IMG/VR virus record: IMGVR_UViG_3300047476_000561
Span: 1-21,304 of that record
DNA from: a virus
Direction: 5' to 3' (one strand)
DNA: 21,304 bases
Each line of letters starts with the position of its first letter. Positions within the stretch are counted from its first letter, which is position 1. Below, in pieces: positions 12,511 to 21,218 of this stretch. Under the pieces are notes generated by a model, which searched no databases, was not told the DNA's origin, and saw only the letters and a list, made by a program, of their open reading frames with translations. The position numbers and the translations under genes were made by a program.

Positions 12511-14397
12511 CTATGTATAAGTTTCGGACCACTGCTCAGCAAAGGCCTCGTCTAAGTTGACTGAAAACCGTTTTTCAGTTTGTGCTCTTGTTGCCCAACG
12601 GTTATGTGCGTAGCGTTGGATACGACCATTCTGTTGCATGAAGTCCCTTGCTCTAAGCACGGTAAACCACAGCGCCATAACACAGTCGGTCTTTCCACGG
12701 GTATTTGGCTTCCAAGTAATTAACTGTTGGACAAGAGCCTTAAGACCCTCTGAGTTCTCCGTAGAAGGAAACTCAATTATGTTGTTCTTTTGAAACTTCT
12801 CATCTCTCATAGTTCCCATGAGCATTGACATACCAGCAACACCAAAGTTGCTATCCCACTTGTTCTTGCTAGTGAAGTGAGATTCTAAACGGCAGCCATA
12901 TGCAGCAAGCCAGTTTCTCAAGTTGTCATCTAGCGAGTATGCCTTTTGATGAGCGTTGATTTCCACACGTAATTCTTGTGGCCTATACTTCTCAACTAAT
13001 TCTTCAATAGTATCTTGAATCTTCTGTGGCGTAGGCTCTGACATATTTACACAATCAAGAATATAAATCCTGCCATCATGCCTGTTGTATGTGGTCACCA
13101 CAAACGCAGCATTCCCGCCCATTGCGGGGTCAAACCCTATTATCGTATACCCCTCAATGTGCGAGGGATGGCCTACGGCTCCTGCTTTCAGCAGGCCACG
13201 TTTGCGTTGCCCATTGATACAGCCCTGCACAATTGCAGGTGGAAAAATAGAATCATCTTGAACATCTTCTTGTTGGTAAACCAACGCCCATGTTGACGGG
13301 GTTACTTCGCCTCTTCTTTTGCTGAGTGCTTGCCCATCCCATTTGGGGTACAAGCCTTCTTCATCAGGCTCATCAGCGTCACCGTCCCACGGAACGTCTG
13401 ACTTCTCCCAGAGCGTTTTCCACTCTTGCGGCTTTTGTGCATATTCCAAAACAGCAGGCATGCCCATATAAGTAAAAGGAGTTTTGCCACCAGACCAATG
13501 CTTGGCTTCCCTGAGTTCTTTGTAAAAGTCTGTCGGCGCAATTCGTGTCCCTACGATTAGCAGTTTACCGTTTTTACCCAAACGGGTAATAACTTCTTTT
13601 TGTAACCAGTTGATTTGTTTCTCGTACTCATGTGCGTTGGCTGTAGTAATACAGTCATCAAGAATGATGAGGTCAGCACGGGCACCGTAAATCTGTCCAC
13701 CCATACCAAGTGCTTGGATGGTTGGGTCCTTCTCAGATGAATTTCGGGCATCGCCCCCAAGGTAAACGGTGTCAACTCGCCAAGTGTCTGAGTCTTCTTT
13801 CCAACCACCTTCTGGGCCAAAAGTTGTTTGCAACTTTAACCATCTTGGGTGGGAAAGTCTCTGCTTGATTGCGTACACGAACTCGCGTGCTTTGACCAAC
13901 GTTTTGGAAACCACAATAATGCGGACATTGGGATTGAGGGCGATACGATATGTGGAGTAGTTTACGGTGATGACCGTACTCTTGGCGTGCTCAGGTGGCA
14001 CGTTAACCAACAGACGGGTAGGGTCACCCTTCTCGTAAATCATGCTAGGGTGGAGCCAAGAAGGCTCCCTACCCTCTAGCAGGTCAATCCAATCCATATG
14101 ATGAGGGAATACCCTCTGGTTCAAAAATATCTCTGAGAACTGAGGAAAGTTTATTTCCTCTTTTGGGATGCCTAAAGATTTTAGGGAGGCATCCTTTGCG
14201 GTCTCTTTGGCCTCTGCTAGGTCGGCGGCAAACTTTTTATCCCGTGCCATCCAGATTCGGACGGTATCAGGTTTCTTGTTTACCTTTTCCATAGCCTTAT
14301 GGACAGAGTGGCCCTCGGCCACCATGGCCAAAACCTTGGCCTTTGCCTCTGCCATCGCAAGGGATTTTGGGTTCACTGAACCCTTCTGAAAAGTCAT
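12511..14397 (-). CDS. terL: Terminase large subunit (ATPase and nuclease)
   Basis: The DNA-packaging motor, 628 aa. Residues about 15-75 form a helix-turn-helix-like extension (EGHSVHKAMEKVNKKPDTVR) of the kind found in small terminase subunits. The ATPase domain has a deviant Walker A, PPEHAKST (134-141), a Walker B LIILDD (243-248) and a coupling motif IVGTR (281-285). The RNase H-like nuclease has Asp423 (GFDPAMGG), Glu479 (LRVEIN) and Asp571 (KTDCVMALW) as its acidic triad. The ATPase cleaves ATP to move DNA through the portal, and the nuclease cuts the concatemer. The ATG at 14397 follows AGGAC five bases upstream. No separate small-terminase gene is visible next to it, so the N-terminal extension may take over DNA recognition. 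Confidence 0.93.
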   Translation of the reverse strand: MTFQKGSVNPKSLAMAEAKAKVLAMVAEGHSVHKAMEKVNKKPDTVRIWMARDKKFAADLAEAKETAKDASLKSLGIPKEEINFPQFSEIFLNQRVFPHHMDWIDLLEGREPSWLHPSMIYEKGDPTRLLVNVPPEHAKSTVITVNYSTYRIALNPNVRIIVVSKTLVKAREFVYAIKQRLSHPRWLKLQTTFGPEGGWKEDSDTWRVDTVYLGGDARNSSEKDPTIQALGMGGQIYGARADLIILDDCITTANAHEYEKQINWLQKEVITRLGKNGKLLIVGTRIAPTDFYKELREAKHWSGGKTPFTYMGMPAVLEYAQKPQEWKTLWEKSDVPWDGDADEPDEEGLYPKWDGQALSKRRGEVTPSTWALVYQQEDVQDDSIFPPAIVQGCINGQRKRGLLKAGAVGHPSHIEGYTIIGFDPAMGGNAAFVVTTYNRHDGRIYILDCVNMSEPTPQKIQDTIEELVEKYRPQELRVEINAHQKAYSLDDNLRNWLAAYGCRLESHFTSKNKWDSNFGVAGMSMLMGTMRDEKFQKNNIIEFPSTENSEGLKALVQQLITWKPNTRGKTDCVMALWFTVLRARDFMQQNGRIQRYAHNRWATRAQTEKRFSVNLDEAFAEQWSETYT

Positions 14398-15526: not shown

Positions 15527-15561
15527 GGATTTCCCCTGAGATAATGCTCAGGGGAAAATCC
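15527..15561 (+). promoter_or_regulatory. Strong hairpin between the first two early genes
   Basis: GGATTTCCCCTGAG (15527-15540) pairs with CTCAGGGGAAAATCC (15547-15561) over 14 base pairs with one bulged A; the loop is ATAATG. There is no T-run, so it is unlikely to be an intrinsic terminator. It ends ten bases before the AAAGGAGATAG ribosome site of the next gene and may stabilise or cleave the transcript. Confidence 0.65.
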
Positions 15562-15585
15562 TCCGAGAATAAAGGAGATAGATAA

Positions 15586-15894
15586 ATGAGTAATTCATTT
15601 AGTTTCAATCAGGTTATCCTGAAGAAGGTTCTTGATTATGATTCAGTAATCAAGGTAAATCTTGAGGACCGTAGAGCAGTAAGCCAACCAGATGGTTCTT
15701 ATCGCTCAGTATTTGTATGCTCTCGTCAGATAACAGTTAATGACACTGACCTTATGAAGTTCATTCGTGAGAATGTATCTGCGAACGATGAGTTCGTAGT
15801 TAATGTAAACGGTTATGCGACTACCACATTTAGTAAGAAAACTAATAAGTGGTATGAGAATCTCGTAGCAACTGAGTTTACTCTCGCTGAGTAA
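15586..15894 (+). CDS. Small beta-rich protein, possible OB-fold/ssDNA-binding type (102 aa)
   Basis: A 102-aa protein from ATG at 15586 with AAAGGAG eight bases upstream. The predicted pattern is mainly strands: VIKVNLEDRRAVSQ, YRSVFVCSRQITVN, DEFVVNVNGYATTTF, then KTNKWYENLVATEFTLAE. A final strand following an aromatic/basic turn resembles the last strands of single-stranded-DNA-binding OB folds, and the size would fit one domain. There is no acidic C-terminal tip beyond the last Glu. The OB-fold idea is a weak inference; a different beta-barrel is equally possible. Strong hairpins lie on both sides of the gene, which suggests independent control or high expression. Confidence 0.65.
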   Translation: MSNSFSFNQVILKKVLDYDSVIKVNLEDRRAVSQPDGSYRSVFVCSRQITVNDTDLMKFIRENVSANDEFVVNVNGYATTTFSKKTNKWYENLVATEFTLAE

Positions 15895-15901
15895 TCACTG
15901 G

Positions 15902-15940
15902 CTGGGTAGAGGGGCTTCGGCTCTTCTACCCAGTCTCTTA
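15902..15940 (+). terminator. Stem-loop with UUCG loop, terminator-like
   Basis: A 14-bp stem (15902-15915 with 15920-15933) closes a C(TTCG)G tetraloop. Two pairs are G-U in the plus-strand RNA and would be A-C in the minus-strand RNA, so the plus strand is the structured one. The following TCTCTT is only a short U-rich run, so it may be a partial terminator or an mRNA-end stabiliser rather than a full stop. Confidence 0.6.
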
Positions 15941-15993
15941 AAAAACCACACCGTTTCATCGACAGATGACAGCGAGTCGAACAGGAGATAGCA

Positions 15994-16137
15994 GTGAGCA
16001 GAGACTTAACACCAGAAGATTTAGAAAGATGGAAGAAAGTCAGCAAAGATTATATATTAGTAGACCAGTTCCTACCTACAATCAATGACCTAATCAAGCA
16101 GATAGAGGAGGCAGACTCAGATGTTGGGCTACAATAA
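15994..16137 (+). CDS. Small hypothetical protein (47 aa)
   Basis: A 47-codon ORF starting with GTG at 15994, with AGGAGATAGC directly upstream, the same ribosome-site word used by other early genes. The product (MSRDLTPEDLERWKKVSKDY...) is charged and probably two amphipathic helices, ending EEADSDVGLQ. It overlaps the next small ORF by 17 bases. No family is recognised. The strong ribosome site is the main support. Confidence 0.5.
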   Translation: MSRDLTPEDLERWKKVSKDYILVDQFLPTINDLIKQIEEADSDVGLQ

Positions 16138-16285
16138 TACAGAACTAGAGTGTATGAAGGCTGCCATCAACGCAGCCTTGACAGTCATTGACCAAGAGAA
16201 GTATCCTGCCATCAGCAGAAACCTATACAACGCCTCTGAATTTATCAGCGGACTACAAGTAGAAGGATGGACTAATGTTGGATGA
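16121..16285 (+). CDS. Small hypothetical protein (54 aa)
   Basis: A 54-codon ORF with ATG at 16121, preceded by GAGGAGG nine bases upstream, one of the strongest Shine-Dalgarno sites in the window and located inside the 47-aa ORF. The product (MLGYNNTELECMKAAINAAL...) looks helical with a C-terminal FISGLQVEGWTNVG. It overlaps both neighbours, suggesting coupling. The function is unknown. Confidence 0.5.
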   Translation: MLGYNNTELECMKAAINAALTVIDQEKYPAISRNLYNASEFISGLQVEGWTNVG

Positions 16286-16460
16286 AGATACCCCAGTATG
16301 GGAGCACACCATGTGGATTATGGCAAGAGTTCGGCGCCGCACCTCACATGTAGATATAGATAGGGCAGGAACAGAAGCCCTTGATGACCCAGAAGAATGG
16401 ACAGTGCTAGAATTTGACACAGGAATAAAGCATTCCGAAGAAATAATCCGAATCAGTTAG
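16275..16460 (+). CDS. Small acidic hypothetical protein (61 aa)
   Basis: A 61-aa protein from ATG at 16275, which overlaps the end of the 54-aa ORF by 11 bases; AGAAGGATGG lies upstream as ribosome site. The product has a Trp/Met-containing N-terminal half with an Arg cluster (MWIMARVRRRTSH) and an acidic C-terminal half (DDPEEWTVLEFDTGIKHSEE). No membrane segment or known motif is present. It belongs to a run of tiny overlapping early genes, often the place of host-takeover or anti-defence proteins in phages; that role is only a possibility here. Confidence 0.5.
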   Translation: MLDEDTPVWEHTMWIMARVRRRTSHVDIDRAGTEALDDPEEWTVLEFDTGIKHSEEIIRIS

Positions 16461-16470
16461 GAAAGAGGAA

Positions 16471-16569
16471 ATGATTAATGAGTTCATTACAAGTTACTAC
16501 CTCACGCCAGCACAAACCTGGACATTCTTCATACTCTTTCTCTATCTCACATGGAGGTTCATTAGATGA
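16471..16569 (+). CDS. 32-aa membrane peptide, possible holin-like partner
   Basis: An ORF of 32 codons from ATG at 16471: a short polar start (MINEFITSYYLTP), then one hydrophobic, aromatic-rich helix (TWTFFILFLYLTW) and a basic end (RFIR), giving one likely membrane span. Its TGA overlaps the ATG of the lysozyme-like gene (ATGA), an arrangement that couples translation and is common in lysis cassettes. AGAGG lies only two bases before the ATG, which is close, so the start is not ideal. A competing overlapping frame exists (16478-16771). Membrane topology and pairing with the secreted enzyme make a lysis accessory role conceivable, but this is inference. Confidence 0.5.
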   Translation: MINEFITSYYLTPAQTWTFFILFLYLTWRFIR

Positions 16570-16988
16570 AGAAGTTATTAGCGATGTCCTTAAGTTGGCT
16601 ACTAGGGCTATTGTCAGCACCATTCTTGCCCAGTCCAGCATACGCAGTGGCAATAGCAACACAACTGGAAGCCAACTGCTTAACAGATACCTCATTGTGG
16701 ACCCCACGAACAGCGAAGGCATACGCCAGAGCGCTGATGAATTGGGATTACCCACATTGGAACAGGTCTGAGTGGATAGCATTAGATAAACTTTGGACCA
16801 AAGAAAGTAACTGGAGACATCAAGCAGACAACAAAGAGTCTACTGCTGGTGGAATCCCACAGATATTAGGACTTGACCCTAAGTCGCCAGCCCCGTATCA
16901 AATTGAACGGGGACTGGCTTATATACAGCACCGTTATGAACGACCATCAATTGCTTGGGCTCACTGGCGCAGCAAAGGATGGTATTAG
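16566..16988 (+). CDS. Secreted lysozyme/transglycosylase-like protein
   Basis: A 140-aa protein with a Sec signal peptide: MKK, a hydrophobic core, then a PSPAYA cleavage site near residue 27. The mature part carries the lysozyme-like domain found in actinobacterial secreted proteins: WTKESNW with the catalytic-type Glu80, then GGIPQ (95-99), QIERGLAYIQHRYERP (112-127) and a final AWAHWRSKGWY. The family is expected to cut peptidoglycan glycan strands outside the membrane. One Cys only (Cys38), so no disulfide. It could be the endolysin, exported by the host Sec pathway, or an enzyme acting on the host wall early. It is coupled to the 32-aa membrane peptide by an ATGA overlap. Confidence 0.8.
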   Translation: MKKLLAMSLSWLLGLLSAPFLPSPAYAVAIATQLEANCLTDTSLWTPRTAKAYARALMNWDYPHWNRSEWIALDKLWTKESNWRHQADNKESTAGGIPQILGLDPKSPAPYQIERGLAYIQHRYERPSIAWAHWRSKGWY

Positions 16989-17029
16989 ATTTCTACCTTG
17001 CGCTTCCGTATGGATTCCCTAGGTAGATA

Positions 17030-17131
17030 GATAAATGTATTGGTATCTATAGTCAATCAGTAGAGAAATCTGAAATGATGTTATAGCGGGCCGCCACTAG
17101 CCATACCATAGTGGATACCAATGCATTTGTT
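17030..17131 (+). ncRNA. Candidate structured leader/ncRNA with an 18-bp closing stem
   Basis: The left arm 17030-17047 pairs with the right arm 17114-17131 over 18 base pairs without a mismatch, three of them G-U in the plus-strand RNA (at 17032/17129, 17038/17123 and 17030/17131); in the opposite strand these would be A-C, so the plus strand is favoured. The enclosed 66 bases include a stem CACTA/TAGTG (17095-17099 with 17109-17113) stacked directly on the closing stem, and a weak TCAG/CTGA stem. It lies between the lysozyme-like gene and the DUF4192-like gene, 27 bases before the latter's start. Function unknown; RNA status is inferred from pairing only. Confidence 0.4.
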
Positions 17132-17158
17132 AACCCAACAACTAACAAAGGAGATAGC

Positions 17159-17695
17159 ATGACAACAAAAGAAGCAATCCGTAATGAGATTCTTAGCGAG
17201 TTATTACTTGCCAAAGAATCATACAATCCTGACAGCAAGGATGACAACATCCGTATTGTTGAGAATGTTCGTAAAGCAGTAGATGAAATGGCAGATGGTA
17301 TCAATCCATCAGCAAAGCACATCGCTGAACTAGCAGTTGCTGCTAAAGAAAACATACAAGTTCGTGACTTCTTAATGGGATTGCGTGCTGAAAAAGACTT
17401 TAAGTTTGTAGGAGAATACCTTGAGTATATGGTTGAGTTAATCAAGAAAGATTATTCTTATCCATTAGCAGCAGTTCTAACTACATACTTCTACGAGCAC
17501 GGTGCCTCTGATACAGCCAAGGATTTACTTGAGCAAGTATTAGATACAGACCCAGAGTATGCACTAGGTAAACTATTGCAAAGAGTTTACGCTGCCGAGT
17601 GGCCAGCAGAATCTATGGCTGACATGGCTAAACAACTACACCACAAAATTATAGATACAATCTACGAGACAGAGGAATCAGATGACAACAACTAA
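17159..17695 (+). CDS. DUF4192-like helical protein (178 aa)
   Basis: A 178-aa protein from ATG at 17159, chosen over an in-frame GTG at 17111 because AAAGGAGATAGC lies directly before the ATG and the GTG falls inside a predicted RNA stem. The C-terminal half (YPLAAVLTTYFYEHGASDTA then LLEQVLDTDPEYALGKLLQR) follows the helix pattern of the C-terminal part of actinobacterial DUF4192 proteins (a TPR-like arrangement with aspartate-proline and aliphatic turns). The usual N-terminal part of DUF4192 is not evident, so it may be a shortened relative. Function is unknown for the family. It overlaps the DUF932 gene by 14 bases. Confidence 0.7.
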   Translation: MTTKEAIRNEILSELLLAKESYNPDSKDDNIRIVENVRKAVDEMADGINPSAKHIAELAVAAKENIQVRDFLMGLRAEKDFKFVGEYLEYMVELIKKDYSYPLAAVLTTYFYEHGASDTAKDLLEQVLDTDPEYALGKLLQRVYAAEWPAESMADMAKQLHHKIIDTIYETEESDDNN

Positions 17696-18665
17696 TCTAG
17701 TTCCAGGTGTAAGAAAAGCAGCATGGAATCAGGTTGGCACAGCAGTAACAGCATCATCAGCATCAGAGGTAGCCAGTCAAGCAGGCCTTGACTGGTCAGT
17801 ATCTTTGCATGATATTGAGGCTAACTATGTAGTGCCAGGCAGTGATACAACTAATCGCATACCAGTTGCTAACAAGAAAGCGGTAATTAAAACTACCCCA
17901 TTCGGTGAGACAACTGCTATTGGAGTAGTAGGTAACAAGTATAAACCATTCCAAAATGCAGAGATATTCTCAGCCCTTGATAGCATGATTGATTCAGGTC
18001 AGGCTAGATATGCTGCTGCTGGTGAGTATGATGGCGGCGCTAAAGTATGGATGTTACTAGAGTTACCACTTGAAGTAACAGTTGCTAACGACCCACATGC
18101 TGCGTTCTTATTGGCTAAGACTAGCCATGATGGCAGCGGTTCAGTTAGTATCAAGCCAGTGATTGAACGATTGTTTTGTATGAATCAAATCAATAAGATT
18201 TATCGGAACAATAACAAGCACACATACACACTACGGCATACACAAAATGCAGTGCTATCAGTATCTGATATTAGCAATATCATTCAGTTAACTTATGATA
18301 TGGCTAATGAATATGAGACAATGGCAGAAGCATTAATTAATAAGAAGGTAGACCATGCTCGTGCAGTTAACTACTTCAAGAAAGTATGGGCACTACCATC
18401 TAAGATAGAAGAAGCACCTATTGAGTTGCTATCTTCATCTGAAAAGAATGCCAGAACAAAAGCATTTAATGCTAGAGCAAAGGCATTATCTATTTACAAT
18501 GACTCAACTACACAGTTTAATATCAAAGGAACTGAGTTCGGTTTATGGCAGGCAGTGGTAGAATACGCTGACCATCATAGCATTTCAAAGAACCGAGCAG
18601 TTGCTACTATTGCACAACGCAATGATGGTATTAAAGTAAGAGCACTTGAACTACTAGGAATGTAA
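17682..18665 (+). CDS. DUF932 family phage/plasmid protein
   Basis: A 327-aa protein of the DUF932 family (phage/plasmid-like protein), recognised by its N-terminal phrase KAAWNQVGTAV, the following AGLDWSV, the GVVGNKYKPFQNAEIF segment at about residues 80-97, and the later FCMNQ region (about 165). Members occur on many phages and plasmids, but their biochemical role is not established. It is soluble with no signal peptide. The ATG at 17682 lies inside the end of the DUF4192-like gene with GAGG ten bases upstream. Co-localisation with that gene and with replication genes downstream suggests an early function. Confidence 0.85.
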   Translation: MTTTNLVPGVRKAAWNQVGTAVTASSASEVASQAGLDWSVSLHDIEANYVVPGSDTTNRIPVANKKAVIKTTPFGETTAIGVVGNKYKPFQNAEIFSALDSMIDSGQARYAAAGEYDGGAKVWMLLELPLEVTVANDPHAAFLLAKTSHDGSGSVSIKPVIERLFCMNQINKIYRNNNKHTYTLRHTQNAVLSVSDISNIIQLTYDMANEYETMAEALINKKVDHARAVNYFKKVWALPSKIEEAPIELLSSSEKNARTKAFNARAKALSIYNDSTTQFNIKGTEFGLWQAVVEYADHHSISKNRAVATIAQRNDGIKVRALELLGM

Positions 18666-18674
18666 GGAGATAGC

Positions 18675-19124
18675 ATGACAATGTATTACAGTGAAAACAA
18701 CGGTGAACCATTCATCACTATCCAAGTTAAAGATGCTAAGTATACCCTTACTCAAGCAGCCTTGGCTGAAATCATTGAGAAGAATGAATCACTTAAGGTA
18801 GAACTAGAACAAAGCAACCGTATGATTAGAAGTTTAGGTTGGGATGTTAGAGAGTTCTTTGAGTCTAGACAAAACTCAGGTGAAGATGAAATCATCTGCA
18901 GTGTAGAAGATGTCAATGAACTACTACTTAAATTAAATGTAGACCCATTAGTCAAAACATGGTCAGCAACAGTGCTAATCTCAGCCACAATTACTGGCAT
19001 AGAAGCAGTAGATGCAGACGCAGCAAGAGAGTTAATCGAAAATAATATTGAGGTTAACCTTACTGAAGATGGTGACCTATGGGTTGATGACATTGATGTA
19101 AGTGATGTGCATCCTGAATCATAG
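18675..19124 (+). CDS. Acidic hypothetical protein (149 aa)
   Basis: A 149-aa acidic protein from ATG at 18675, with AAGGAGATAGC immediately upstream. The N-terminal half has a beta-like start (EPFITIQVKDAKYTLTQAAL), then a probable coiled-coil helix (LAEIIEKNESLKVELEQSNR). The C-terminal half (WSATVLISATITGIEAVDAD ... LWVDDIDVSDV) looks like a small alpha/beta domain with two strands and a very acidic end. This C-terminal pattern is common in hypothetical proteins of actinobacteriophages, but the function is unknown. A candidate promoter begins just after its stop. Confidence 0.65.
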   Translation: MTMYYSENNGEPFITIQVKDAKYTLTQAALAEIIEKNESLKVELEQSNRMIRSLGWDVREFFESRQNSGEDEIICSVEDVNELLLKLNVDPLVKTWSATVLISATITGIEAVDADAARELIENNIEVNLTEDGDLWVDDIDVSDVHPES

Positions 19125-19126
19125 TA

Positions 19127-19135
19127 TGTTATACT
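19127..19135 (+). promoter_or_regulatory. Candidate extended -10 promoter
   Basis: TG-T-TATACT (19127-19135) fits the extended -10 form TGnTATAAT with one mismatch. No good -35 is seen, as often with extended -10 promoters. Transcription would start near 19142, exactly at the first base of the downstream hairpin, so the transcript would begin with that structure. Confidence 0.45.
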
Positions 19136-19141
19136 AATCTT

Positions 19142-19192
19142 GAGTGCCCCGATTTTGGCTATCTCCTTTCTCGGGGCTACTCATAAAGGAGA
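19142..19192 (+). promoter_or_regulatory. Hairpin with anti-Shine-Dalgarno loop, candidate pseudoknot
   Basis: GCCCCGA (19146-19152) pairs with TCGGGGC (19171-19177), extended by GAGT/ACTC (19142-19145 with 19179-19182) across one bulged T. The 18-base loop contains TCTCCTTT (19162-19169), a perfect complement of AAAGGAGA (19185-19192), the ribosome site of the nuclease gene at 19196. Pairing of loop and site would form an H-type pseudoknot (7-bp and 8-bp stems, loops of 9, 1 and 7 bases) that hides the ribosome site. The loop also reads GCTATCTCCTTT, a full complement of AAAGGAGATAGC, used upstream of other early genes. Confidence 0.55.
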
Positions 19193-19195
19193 GCA

Positions 19196-19975
19196 ATGGC
19201 ACACTTACAAATAGAACGAGATAGATACGGCAGACCACTAGTAGTTCCACCCAAAGGTGGTAAGCCAGTAGCATATACAAGAGCAACTACAATTGCTAAC
19301 TCATTAGATGATGCGTCAGCATTAGTTGCCTGGAAGATGCGTATGGCAGCCATTGGTTTAACAACTAGGCCAGACATATTGTTATCTATTAGCGCAGCAC
19401 AAGATGACAAAATGGCAGTCAATTCTTTTATTGAAGATGCTATGCAAGTAGCAGGTGCAAACAAAGCAGCAAACATTGGCACCGCTATACATTCATTTGC
19501 AGAGCGACTAGATTTAGGATTAGAGTTAGGTGTCATACCACCTGAATATTTACCAGATATAAAAGCGTATGAAGAAACAACTAAGATTCTCAACAACAAG
19601 TTCATTGAACAGTTCAGTGTGCTAGACAAATACAAAATTGCTGGCACACCAGATAGAGTTGTTGAGTATAACGGCGAGTTATTTATTGCAGATATTAAGA
19701 CAGGTCGAATAGACCATCCAAATAATATCTCAATTCAGTTGGCTATCTATGCCAACGGCTTGCCGTATGACCCTGCTACGGCAACCCGTGGCACATGGGG
19801 AGATGTAAACAAAGAGAAGGCAATCATTATTCATTTACCTGCAGGTAGTGGCACGTGCAAACTAGTGTGGATAGATATTAAAGAAGGCCATAAGGGTTTA
19901 CAATTCGCTATGAAAGCAAGACAATGGAGAGACCAAAAAGGTCTTTCTTATCCGTTCGAACAGGAGAACAAATAG
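19196..19975 (+). CDS. PD-(D/E)XK exonuclease (RecB/Cas4-like)
   Basis: A 259-aa nuclease of the PD-(D/E)XK superfamily. A conserved His lies in GTAIHSFAERLDLG (His99), the acidic motif in IAGTPDRV (Asp153), the core in ELFIADIKTG (Asp166-x-Lys168), and a QLAIYANG motif follows (Gln181, Tyr185). This arrangement is the RecB/Cas4-type exonuclease module that cuts DNA ends with Mg2+. The four Cys of Cas4 iron-sulphur enzymes are missing, so it is closer to phage recombination exonucleases. It starts with ATG at 19196 after AAAGGAGA and is preceded by the hairpin described above. Its stop overlaps the start of the next gene by one base, so it probably works with the zinc protein and the ATPase in replication or recombination. 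Confidence 0.85.
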   Translation: MAHLQIERDRYGRPLVVPPKGGKPVAYTRATTIANSLDDASALVAWKMRMAAIGLTTRPDILLSISAAQDDKMAVNSFIEDAMQVAGANKAANIGTAIHSFAERLDLGLELGVIPPEYLPDIKAYEETTKILNNKFIEQFSVLDKYKIAGTPDRVVEYNGELFIADIKTGRIDHPNNISIQLAIYANGLPYDPATATRGTWGDVNKEKAIIIHLPAGSGTCKLVWIDIKEGHKGLQFAMKARQWRDQKGLSYPFEQENK

Positions 19976-20409
19976 TGTCTCACTCAGAAGCACCAATCAG
20001 CATCACAGTAAAAACAGCAGCAGGTAGTTTAGTAACAGTTCGTGCAGAGCACGGAGACCAACTAGACCTACTACTTGTTAATGGACTGGAAGCAATCAAG
20101 TCAGCAACAACTGAACTTGAATCAGCAATCAGAGGTGCAGCACCAGTAGCAACACCAATGACAGCAACAGCAATCGCATCATCACTAGGCGCAAGCATCA
20201 TCTCAACTGATAACTCAACTGCATCGCTTGGTGGACGCAATTGCCCACATGGAAAGATGACTGCAATTCAAGGAACAGGTAAAGATGGTTCTTTGTATCG
20301 TGGTTATTTCTGCCCAGCACCAAAGGGTGCCTTTGATAAATGTAAGAACGTTTATCTAAAAACAACAGACGCAGCATGGAACACATTCGTTCCTGAACAG
20401 GTTAAGTGA
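19975..20409 (+). CDS. Zinc-binding replication-associated protein (144 aa)
   Basis: A 144-aa protein from GTG at 19975 with AGGAGA eight bases upstream; a longer reading from ATG at 19924 is possible but overlaps the nuclease gene heavily and lacks a site. The N-terminal half is an Ala/Thr-rich beta/helix domain. The C-terminal half has NCPHGKMTAI, then GYFCPAPKG and DKCKNVY, a CPHG...C...C zinc ribbon of a type seen in phage proteins beside replication genes. The ribbon probably binds single-stranded DNA or a replication partner. The TGA overlaps the next GTG (GTGA). The function is inferred from family pattern and context. Confidence 0.75.
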   Translation: MSHSEAPISITVKTAAGSLVTVRAEHGDQLDLLLVNGLEAIKSATTELESAIRGAAPVATPMTATAIASSLGASIISTDNSTASLGGRNCPHGKMTAIQGTGKDGSLYRGYFCPAPKGAFDKCKNVYLKTTDAAWNTFVPEQVK

Positions 20410-21218
20410 AAACACTTAGACGCTCCATCAACAAAGCAGAAGTGGGGGGCGAACCATTGCCCCCTGCTTTTCAAGCATTTGAAAGAGCGGGAATTATATT
20501 ACGGCGTGCAGAAGTAACAGTAATTGCAGGCACGCCTGGCGCAGGTAAGTCATCAGTAGCATTGGCTATTGCAGCCAGAGCAAAACTACCTACACTTTAC
20601 TTCAGTGCGGATACTAATGCACATACAATGGCGATGAGATTAATTTCAATGGCAGGTAAGATGAGTCAGTCTGCTGCCGAACAGTTACTAAAGAAAGACC
20701 CAGACAGAGCAGCGGAATTACTATTACTAAATAATCATTTGTTTTGGTCATTTGAATCTACACCTACATTAAAAGATTTAGATGAAGAGGTATCTGCGTT
20801 TGAAACTATCTGGGGTAGAAGTCCTACACTAATAGTTGTAGATAATCTTATGGACATAGCAATGGATGGACATGAAGAGTTCCAAGGTATGCGTGCTGCT
20901 ATGAAGGAGTTAAAGTATTTGGCTAGAGATACCAATGCTGCAGTCCTAGTATTACACCATACTAAAGAAGGCTTTGAAGGTTATCCATGCCAGCCACGGT
21001 CAGCAGTTCAAGGTCTAGTCAATCAGATACCAGCAATGGTATTAACTATTGGCCAGATGAAACAAGGTAATGATAACTTCTTGTGCGTAGCACCAGTAAA
21101 GAATCGTTATGGTAGGGCAGACCAGACTGGCAATAACTATGTGACGTTAGCATTCGACCCAGAGTCTATGCATCTTGATGATGTTATGATTCGTTATATG
21201 GCACCAGAAATGTTTTAA
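20406..21218 (+). CDS. RecA/DnaB-fold ATPase (helicase-like)
   Basis: A 270-aa P-loop ATPase of the RecA/DnaB type. The Walker A is GTPGAGKS (42-49), followed by a helix and the strand LPTLYFSADT (61-70) where DnaB-like proteins have their second motif. The Walker B is TLIVVDN (141-147), and LVLHHTKE (181-188) takes the place of the sensor strand. The size corresponds to the C-terminal ATPase domain alone, without the N-terminal primase-binding domain of DnaB, so it could be a short replicative helicase or a RepA/recombination-type ATPase. It starts with GTG at 20406 overlapping the preceding stop, and its TAA overlaps the next ATG. Confidence 0.82.
   Translation: MKTLRRSINKAEVGGEPLPPAFQAFERAGIILRRAEVTVIAGTPGAGKSSVALAIAARAKLPTLYFSADTNAHTMAMRLISMAGKMSQSAAEQLLKKDPDRAAELLLLNNHLFWSFESTPTLKDLDEEVSAFETIWGRSPTLIVVDNLMDIAMDGHEEFQGMRAAMKELKYLARDTNAAVLVLHHTKEGFEGYPCQPRSAVQGLVNQIPAMVLTIGQMKQGNDNFLCVAPVKNRYGRADQTGNNYVTLAFDPESMHLDDVMIRYMAPEMF

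What the first reader, a model, noticed from the sequence alone, without database searches (positions are those of the whole stretch)
15571..19169. One RNA loop complementary to the ribosome sites of four other early genes
The word AAAGGAGATAGC, or 10-11 bases of it, is the ribosome site of the genes starting at 15586 (15571-15581), 15994 (15983-15992), 17159 (17147-17158, all 12 bases) and 18675 (18664-18674). The loop at 19158-19169 is GCTATCTCCTTT, the exact 12-base complement, and it fits these distant sites better than its own cis site (8 bases). A short RNA from the promoter at 19127 could therefore bind several early messages in trans and hold back translation, making a small phage-encoded anti-SD regulator of the early arm. 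The reuse of one SD word could alternatively come from gene duplication or strong SD selection.
Basis: partly seen in the sequence, partly recalled or inferred. Interest (0 to 1): 0.72.

Follow-up and report, generated by a model that had tools for sequence, protein, structure and literature searches.

The report
Phage hairpin matching its ribosome sites
These freshwater actinobacterial phages carry a small RNA hairpin whose loop is an exact mirror of the ribosome-binding word shared by a set of their early genes, and the loop and the words have changed together during evolution, which points to an RNA switch that most likely turns those genes off.

Summary
AGGAGATAG occurs five times in the window (0.14 expected): at four early-gene ribosome sites and, antisense, in the loop of a hairpin at 19141-19183. 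Several hundred related contigs were fetched. The hairpin sits before the exonuclease-gp49-DnaB operon in nearly all relatives, at the 5' end of a transcript (extended -10 box in 84 of 86 upstreams). Its stem sequence changes freely while pairing is kept. The loop coevolves with the ribosome sites of orthologous upstream genes (SSB, DUF4192, the 18675 gene and others). Loop TATCTCC goes with GGAGAT (208/220, GGAGAC 0). Loop GTCTCC goes with GGAGAC (185/252). A clade without the hairpin has GGAGAA (25/32). Genes of the hairpin's own operon do not follow the loop. A sister clade with cultured 'Ca. Planktophila' phages E7 and F5 has its own pair (loop CTCCTGTC, word GACAGGAGA at nine sites, six on the opposite strand). 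Best reading: the hairpin heads the replication message and pairs in trans with early-gene Shine-Dalgarno sites, probably repressing them. Pairing is well supported; repression, timing and a free small RNA are inferred. It resembles RNAIII and 6C loops but is phage-encoded, matches no Rfam family and may explain mycobacteriophage "start associated sequences".

The parts
19127..19135 (+). extended -10 promoter element TGTTATACT; transcription start expected near 19141-19143, so the hairpin is at the 5' end of the RNA
   Evidence: TGNTANNNT lies within 40 nt upstream of the hairpin in 84 of 86 unique upstream regions against 3.5% of random positions; end of the -10 box usually 8-9 nt before the first stem base
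19141..19183 (+). hairpin: 12-bp stem (19141-19152 with 19171-19183, one bulge at 19178), 18-nt loop 19153-19170
   Evidence: folds at -22.5 kcal/mol; the eight loop-proximal pairs are canonical in 308 of 312 cells of 39 distinct hairpins and occur as several pair types at every position; real upstreams score far above shuffled ones
19158..19169 (+). anti-SD loop GCTATCTCCTTT
   Evidence: exact complement of AAAGGAGATAGC; loop class coevolves with SD words
19185..19192 (+). cis SD of the exonuclease gene, AAAGGAGA, only 8 nt complementary to the loop
   Evidence: cis match is 8 nt in 78 of 101 relatives while trans target sites mostly match 9-11; duplex -13.3 kcal/mol
15571..15581 (+). target site 1: SD AAAGGAGATAG of the gene 15586-15894, an OB-fold SSB-like protein
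   Evidence: duplex with loop -16.1 against -9.1 kcal/mol with the 16S tail; fold pLDDT 92, Foldseek hits PriB and SSB, E about 5e-5
15983..15992 (+). target site 2: SD AGGAGATAGC of a 47-aa ORF, 15994-16137
   Evidence: duplex -18.2 against -10.2
17147..17158 (+). target site 3: SD AAAGGAGATAGC of the DUF4192 gene, 17159-17695
   Evidence: duplex -19.4 against -9.2; Pfam DUF4192; orthologues follow the loop class (FAM 4)
18664..18674 (+). target site 4: SD AAGGAGATAGC of the gene 18675-19124, unknown function
   Evidence: duplex -18.4 against -8.2; FAM 2 pairs at all four extension positions in 86% (CTAT), 100% (TTGT), 75% (TAGT), 78% (CTGT) of nonredundant cases, wobble counted
19196..21218 (+). 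operon headed by the hairpin: PD-(D/E)XK exonuclease (19196-19975), gp49-like (19924-20409), DnaB-like helicase (20406-21218); not targets
   Evidence: orthologous downstream families do not match the loop word

Best explanation
The hairpin at 19141-19183 is a 5'-terminal RNA element of the phage replication operon message. Its 18-nt loop displays a mimic of the 16S anti-SD, extended by phage-specific bases. It base-pairs in trans with the Shine-Dalgarno regions of a regulon of early genes (SSB, the 15994 ORF, DUF4192, the 18675 protein and their relatives) that carry the matching word. The loop duplex (-16 to -19 kcal/mol) is about twice as stable as the 16S duplex on the same sites (-8 to -10), so pairing should keep 30S subunits off. 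The likely effect is that, as the replication operon is transcribed, translation of the early set falls: an early-to-replication switch. Shown: site reuse, conserved hairpin, promoter position, loop-SD coevolution, target and non-target partition, a second clade with a different word. Inferred: direct pairing in vivo, repression as its outcome, timing, and whether the acting molecule is the whole leader or a processed 5' fragment.
For: Five functional-position matches against 0.14 expected. Stem covaries in 39 distinct hairpins while the loop core is fixed within a clade. Promoter at a fixed distance in 84/86. Loop class predicts SD words: the predicted 4-nt extension is the commonest in all four large classes (ATAG 103/550, ACTA 106/397, ACAG 16/70, ACAA 15/89) and rare elsewhere; class-label permutation P = 0.0003. 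Within orthologous families, summed match 29.6 against 15.7 +/- 2.5, 0 of 20,000 permutations. Target families GGAGAT 208/220 and GGAGAC 0/220 with A loops, GGAGAC 185/252 with G loops, GGAGAA 25/32 without a hairpin. Non-target families match their own loop hardly better than other loops (1.43 against 1.29 extra pairs; targets 2.98 against 1.96). G-U replacements keep pairing (GGAGATGG with CTAT, GGAGACGA with TTGT). Families with more than half of their SDs matching all lie upstream of the hairpin, 0.5-4.8 kb. In near-complete genomes AGGAGATAGC is absent from six genomes of other classes and AGGAGACTA from eight class-A genomes. E7/F5 clade: word GACAGGAGA at 9 RBSs against 0.33 expected, six on the strand opposite to the hairpin, hairpin in 33 loci directly before the exonuclease and in 25 of 27 others slightly further upstream, with different stems.
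Against: No expression or interaction data. Small loop classes (TCGT, GTGT, TGTT, CAGT, CACT, GAGT) show no exact 4-nt match in their few SDs. F5 has a T-to-C loop change without a matching SD change. In class A most near-complete genomes have only 0-2 copies of the full AGGAGATAGC word; most sites match 9-10 nt. Relatives are not independent: about 21 loop changes on the exonuclease tree. Target families were chosen by their match, so only own-against-other comparisons are unbiased. No terminator after the hairpin. The 16S 3' end used is general knowledge, not read from a host genome.
Confidence: 0.66

Rival explanations
1. The loop acts only in cis: it pairs with the SD of the exonuclease gene next to it (a pseudoknot-type leader switch), and the distant matches come from ordinary SD selection.
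For: The cis SD is complementary over 8 nt in most relatives; in the E7 clade the neighbouring SD carries the full 9-nt word.
Against: The cis match is shorter than the trans matches. The extra loop bases (GGCTA, GATTA and others) are not used in cis yet predict trans SDs. The linker between the stem and the cis SD is only 1 nt here against a 12-bp stem, which makes an intramolecular pseudoknot unlikely (inference). E7 sites on the opposite strand cannot be in cis.
Confidence: 0.1
2. Strong or lineage-specific SD preference or gene duplication explains the shared word; the complementary loop is a by-product of mimicking the 16S anti-SD.
For: The core AGGAG is the universal 16S complement and part of the match is therefore generic; GGAGAT is also fairly common in non-target genes (54 of 330 in class A).
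Against: The informative bases lie outside the 16S complement and switch between clades together with the loop. Target and non-target genes of the same contigs differ. The hairpin-less clade loses the word. The target proteins are unrelated to each other.
Confidence: 0.06
3. Loop and SD words do pair, but the outcome is not repression: for example the SD-bearing messages sequester the leader to control the exonuclease operon, or pairing stabilises, cleaves or co-localises the messages.
For: The loop is at the 5' end of a message, so binding could alter that message; 10-12 bp duplexes next to a long stem could attract RNase III (inference).
Against: The duplex covers the SD of every target, for which blocked initiation is the simplest result; many sites and one loop fit one regulator with many targets.
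Confidence: 0.18

Closest known systems
Staphylococcus aureus RNAIII and related staphylococcal sRNAs with C-rich (UCCC) loops
   Same: one RNA with exposed hairpin loops complementary to the SD of several mRNAs, blocking initiation (RNAIII-coa: PMC2837412, listed; details from general knowledge)
   Different: chromosomal, long structured RNA; here a single short hairpin at the head of a phage message, with a set of SDs that coevolves with the loop
6C sRNA of actinobacteria (M. tuberculosis 6C, M. abscessus B11)
   Same: actinobacterial hairpin RNA whose C-rich loops bind several mRNAs, in 5' UTRs (PMC10470900, which cites Mai et al. 2019)
   Different: two C-rich loops, chromosomal sRNA with its own Rfam model; the window hairpin has one loop, no C-run, no Rfam match
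Start associated sequences (SAS/ESAS) of Cluster K mycobacteriophages
   Same: a word longer than the 16S complement reused at the RBS of 11-19 non-structural genes (PMC3203893). In K1 phages the only reverse-orientation copy lies in a hairpin loop
   Different: different word (GGGATAGGAGCCC); SAS persists in K2, K3 and other phages without such a loop; role still ill-defined as of 2024 (PMC11373665)
Phage antisense RNAs such as P1/P7 C4, P22 sar, lambda OOP
   Same: small phage RNAs that control translation or stability of phage messages by pairing (from general knowledge)
   Different: those act on one message encoded nearby; here one loop fits many RBSs

Membership tests
6C sRNA (Rfam RF01066) | scores above the Rfam gathering threshold | tested here: not met
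   no family at gathering threshold in the window; only two weak minus-strand chance matches to other families at E 0.7 and 1.5
6C sRNA (Rfam RF01066) | two hairpins with C-rich (about 6 C) loops | tested here: not met
   one hairpin with loop TTTTGGCTATCTCCTTTC
trans-acting anti-SD loop regulators (functional class: RNAIII, 6C) | one exposed loop complementary to SDs of several unrelated mRNAs | tested here: met
   four SDs at 10-12 nt; coevolution across relatives
trans-acting anti-SD loop regulators (functional class: RNAIII, 6C) | pairing demonstrated to repress translation in the cell | not testable with these tools
   needs expression data or reporters
Cluster K start associated sequences | 13-bp consensus GGGATAGGAGCCC (up to two deviations) at RBSs | tested here: not met
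   window word is AAAGGAGATAGC; only the AGGAG core is shared
Cluster K start associated sequences | conserved word beyond the 16S complement at RBSs of several non-structural genes | tested here: met
cis-acting SD-sequestering leaders (riboswitch or thermometer type) | SD of the adjacent gene sequestered by the upstream hairpin | tested here: inconclusive
   8-nt complementarity present, but a 1-nt linker against a 12-bp stem and no matching Rfam riboswitch

The most novel reading that the evidence does not exclude
A general and so far undescribed layer of phage gene control in actinobacteriophages: a genome keeps a private ribosome-site word on a set of early genes and one hairpin with the complementary loop at the head of a later operon, which shuts the set off in trans. 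Word and loop drift together, so each phage lineage has its own private code. The mycobacteriophage SAS system would be another instance.
Probability: 0.45. Interest if true: 0.88.

Novelty: new variant of a known kind. Interest (0 to 1): 0.8.

Why it matters
It would be a phage-encoded RNA regulon with one loop, many ribosome sites and a code that differs between lineages, in a very abundant group of freshwater phages. It offers a testable explanation for the start associated sequences of mycobacteriophages, unexplained since 2011. Cultured phages with the element exist (E7 and F5 on 'Ca. Planktophila'; Adephagia-type phages on M. smegmatis), so the idea can be tested directly. The loop-word pairs could also serve as ready-made orthogonal translation switches.

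Tried and rejected
Whole-window megablast against phage records gave nothing. A genome-contig scan gave no relatives. Rfam gave no family. Streptomyces phage Omar and Mycobacterium prophage relatives of the exonuclease show no such hairpin before that gene. Microbacterium EF phage AnnaSerena has its SAS but no complementary hairpin loop at up to 3 (first 40 kb) or 2 mismatches (rest). TM4 and Pixie have SAS but no complementary loop. The hairpin-less clade was searched for a TCTCC-type loop elsewhere; the one candidate, in L320, lies 7.1 kb downstream and its loop does not match that clade's usual word. Two of the 34 contigs counted as hairpin-less (L345, L296) belong to the TGCTGT clade and may be misread by the hairpin finder. 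The MAFFT alignment of all hairpins shifts stems between classes, so pair counts were made on hairpins anchored at the loop. At first the E7 clade seemed to have hairpin-less members with the same word; the hairpin was then found one gene further upstream in 25 of 27. Structure of the 18675 protein is low confidence (pTM 0.43) and was not searched. Literature searches found no description of such a phage system.
Full report
OBSERVATION. AGGAGATAG occurs five times in 21.3 kb against 0.14 expected: four times as the SD of an early + strand gene and once, antisense, in the loop. No other gene start checked in the window matches the loop by more than 8 nt. The loop belongs to a 12-bp hairpin, 19141-19183 (-22.5 kcal/mol, z -2.8).

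SURROUNDINGS. Late genes run leftward (terminase 12511-14397 and below), early genes rightward from about 15.0 kb. The hairpin lies between the 18675 gene and an operon of PD-(D/E)XK exonuclease, gp49-like protein and DnaB-like helicase. The targets are an OB-fold SSB-like protein (15586; pLDDT 92, Foldseek hits PriB and SSB), a 47-aa ORF (15994), a DUF4192 protein (17159) and a protein of unknown function (18675). They are unrelated in sequence, which argues against gene duplication. Protein relatives are mainly actinobacteriophages. The terminase is 63% identical to that of E7 and F5, the first phages isolated on 'Ca. Planktophila', so the host is probably a freshwater Nanopelagicales bacterium (inference).

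THE HAIRPIN IS A REAL, 5'-TERMINAL RNA ELEMENT. Of 320 relatives with a readable upstream region, 286 have a hairpin with a CTCC loop just before the exonuclease. In 39 distinct hairpins the eight loop-proximal pairs are canonical in 308 of 312 cells, with several pair types at each position; scores exceed shuffled upstreams (median 25 against 14.5). Because the hairpins were picked by pairing score, the shuffles and the fixed place and loop are the control. An extended -10 box lies upstream in 84 of 86 unique cases (3.5% at random positions), usually ending 8-9 nt before the stem, so the stem starts at about +1 to +3 (inference from usual promoter spacing). There is no terminator-like site after it: the element is at least the leader of the exonuclease message.

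LOOP AND SD WORDS COEVOLVE. Loops fall into classes by the four bases 5' of CTCC. Each class predicts the bases that should follow GGAG in paired SDs. The predicted word is the commonest in all four large classes (CTAT/ATAG 103 of 550; TAGT/ACTA 106 of 397; CTGT/ACAG 16 of 70; TTGT/ACAA 15 of 89) and rare in the others; permuting loops among classes gives P = 0.0003. Small classes mostly do not match. Within orthologous gene families the summed match is 29.6 against 15.7 +/- 2.5 (0 of 20,000 permutations, labels permuted within families). In target families, CTAT loops go with GGAGAT 208/220 and GGAGAC 0; loops ending in GT go with GGAGAC 185/252; the hairpin-less clade has GGAGAA 25/32. Some departures keep pairing through G-U: GGAGATGG with CTAT, GGAGACGA with TTGT. 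The exonuclease tree needs about 21 loop changes. Near-complete genomes show class exclusivity: AGGAGATAGC is absent from six genomes of other classes, AGGAGACTA from eight class-A genomes.

WHO IS A TARGET. Families with more than half of their SDs matching lie 0.5-4.8 kb upstream of the hairpin. Genes of the operon headed by the hairpin do not follow the loop. Non-target genes of the same contigs match their own loop hardly better than other loops (1.43 against 1.29 extra pairs) while targets do (2.98 against 1.96), which controls for lineage-wide SD preference. The target set was chosen by match, so only own-against-other contrasts count.

CIS OR TRANS. The adjacent SD matches only 8 nt in most relatives, trans sites 9-11. 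With a 1-nt linker and a 12-bp stem an intramolecular pseudoknot is unlikely (inference). Duplex energies with the loop are -16 to -19 kcal/mol for the four targets, -13 for the cis site and -10.5 or weaker for others; the 16S tail gives -8 to -10 on the targets (the 16S tail is from general knowledge).

A SECOND CLADE. E7 and F5 have an 18-bp hairpin before their exonuclease-gp49-DnaB operon (loop core CTCCTGTC) and the word GACAGGAGA at nine RBSs each against 0.33 expected; six are on the strand opposite to the hairpin, so cis action is excluded for them. Relatives keep the loop core with different stems: 33 loci directly before the exonuclease, 25 of 27 others slightly further upstream. Here the phage-specific bases lie on the other side of the SD (GAC-AGGAG against AA-AGGAG), again matched by the loop.

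MYCOBACTERIOPHAGES. Cluster K phages carry 13-bp start associated sequences at 11-19 RBSs, of unknown role. The single reverse copy noted by their authors lies in the loop of a strong hairpin in a gap near the right end in Anaya, Angelica and Adephagia, and SgtBeansprout and Shaobing have the same loop. Other Cluster K phages keep SAS but have a degraded loop or none. This is a lead, not proof.

MECHANISM. Most likely the replication-operon leader, whole or processed, pairs with early SDs and blocks 30S binding. Shown: reuse, conservation, coevolution, target partition, clade replicate. Inferred: pairing in vivo, repression, timing. Novelty: the principle (a loop on several SDs) is known from RNAIII and 6C; the phage setting, the lineage-private word and the coevolving regulon were not found in the literature searched.

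Noticed in passing
L156 (Anaya) 29871; L158 (Angelica) 28635; L161 (Adephagia) 4683: The only reverse-orientation SAS copy of K1 mycobacteriophages (GGCCTCCTATCCC) is the loop of a strong hairpin in a gap near the right end.
   Followed up: partly
L156 29750-30070 and 174 other Cluster K records: A conserved region of about 320 nt, mostly intergenic, with several hairpins is present in 175 Cluster K phage records; a candidate noncoding RNA.
   Followed up: partly
L416 31658 and L417: Cultured 'Ca. Planktophila' phages E7 and F5 have the same design with another word (GACAGGAGA; nine RBSs).
   Followed up: yes
L416 31712-31897 and 31881-32489: The E7 exonuclease is split into two overlapping ORFs in different frames, which suggests a frameshift (programmed or sequence error).
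   Followed up: no
upstream of the hairpin in L078, L065, L074, L076, L148: In classes B and D an inverted repeat with a CCTTCC-type loop overlaps or flanks the -10 box, possibly an operator or a terminator of the upstream operon.
   Followed up: no
window 15528-15563: Strong inverted repeat GGATTTCCCCTGAG-ATAATG-CTCAGGGGAAAATCC just before the SD of the SSB-like gene.
   Followed up: no
L303, L320, L330 and relatives, upstream of the exonuclease: The clade without the anti-SD hairpin has other conserved hairpins there (TAACACATAG...CTATGTGTTA and GGGATGGGTGGTCCCGCCATC).
   Followed up: partly
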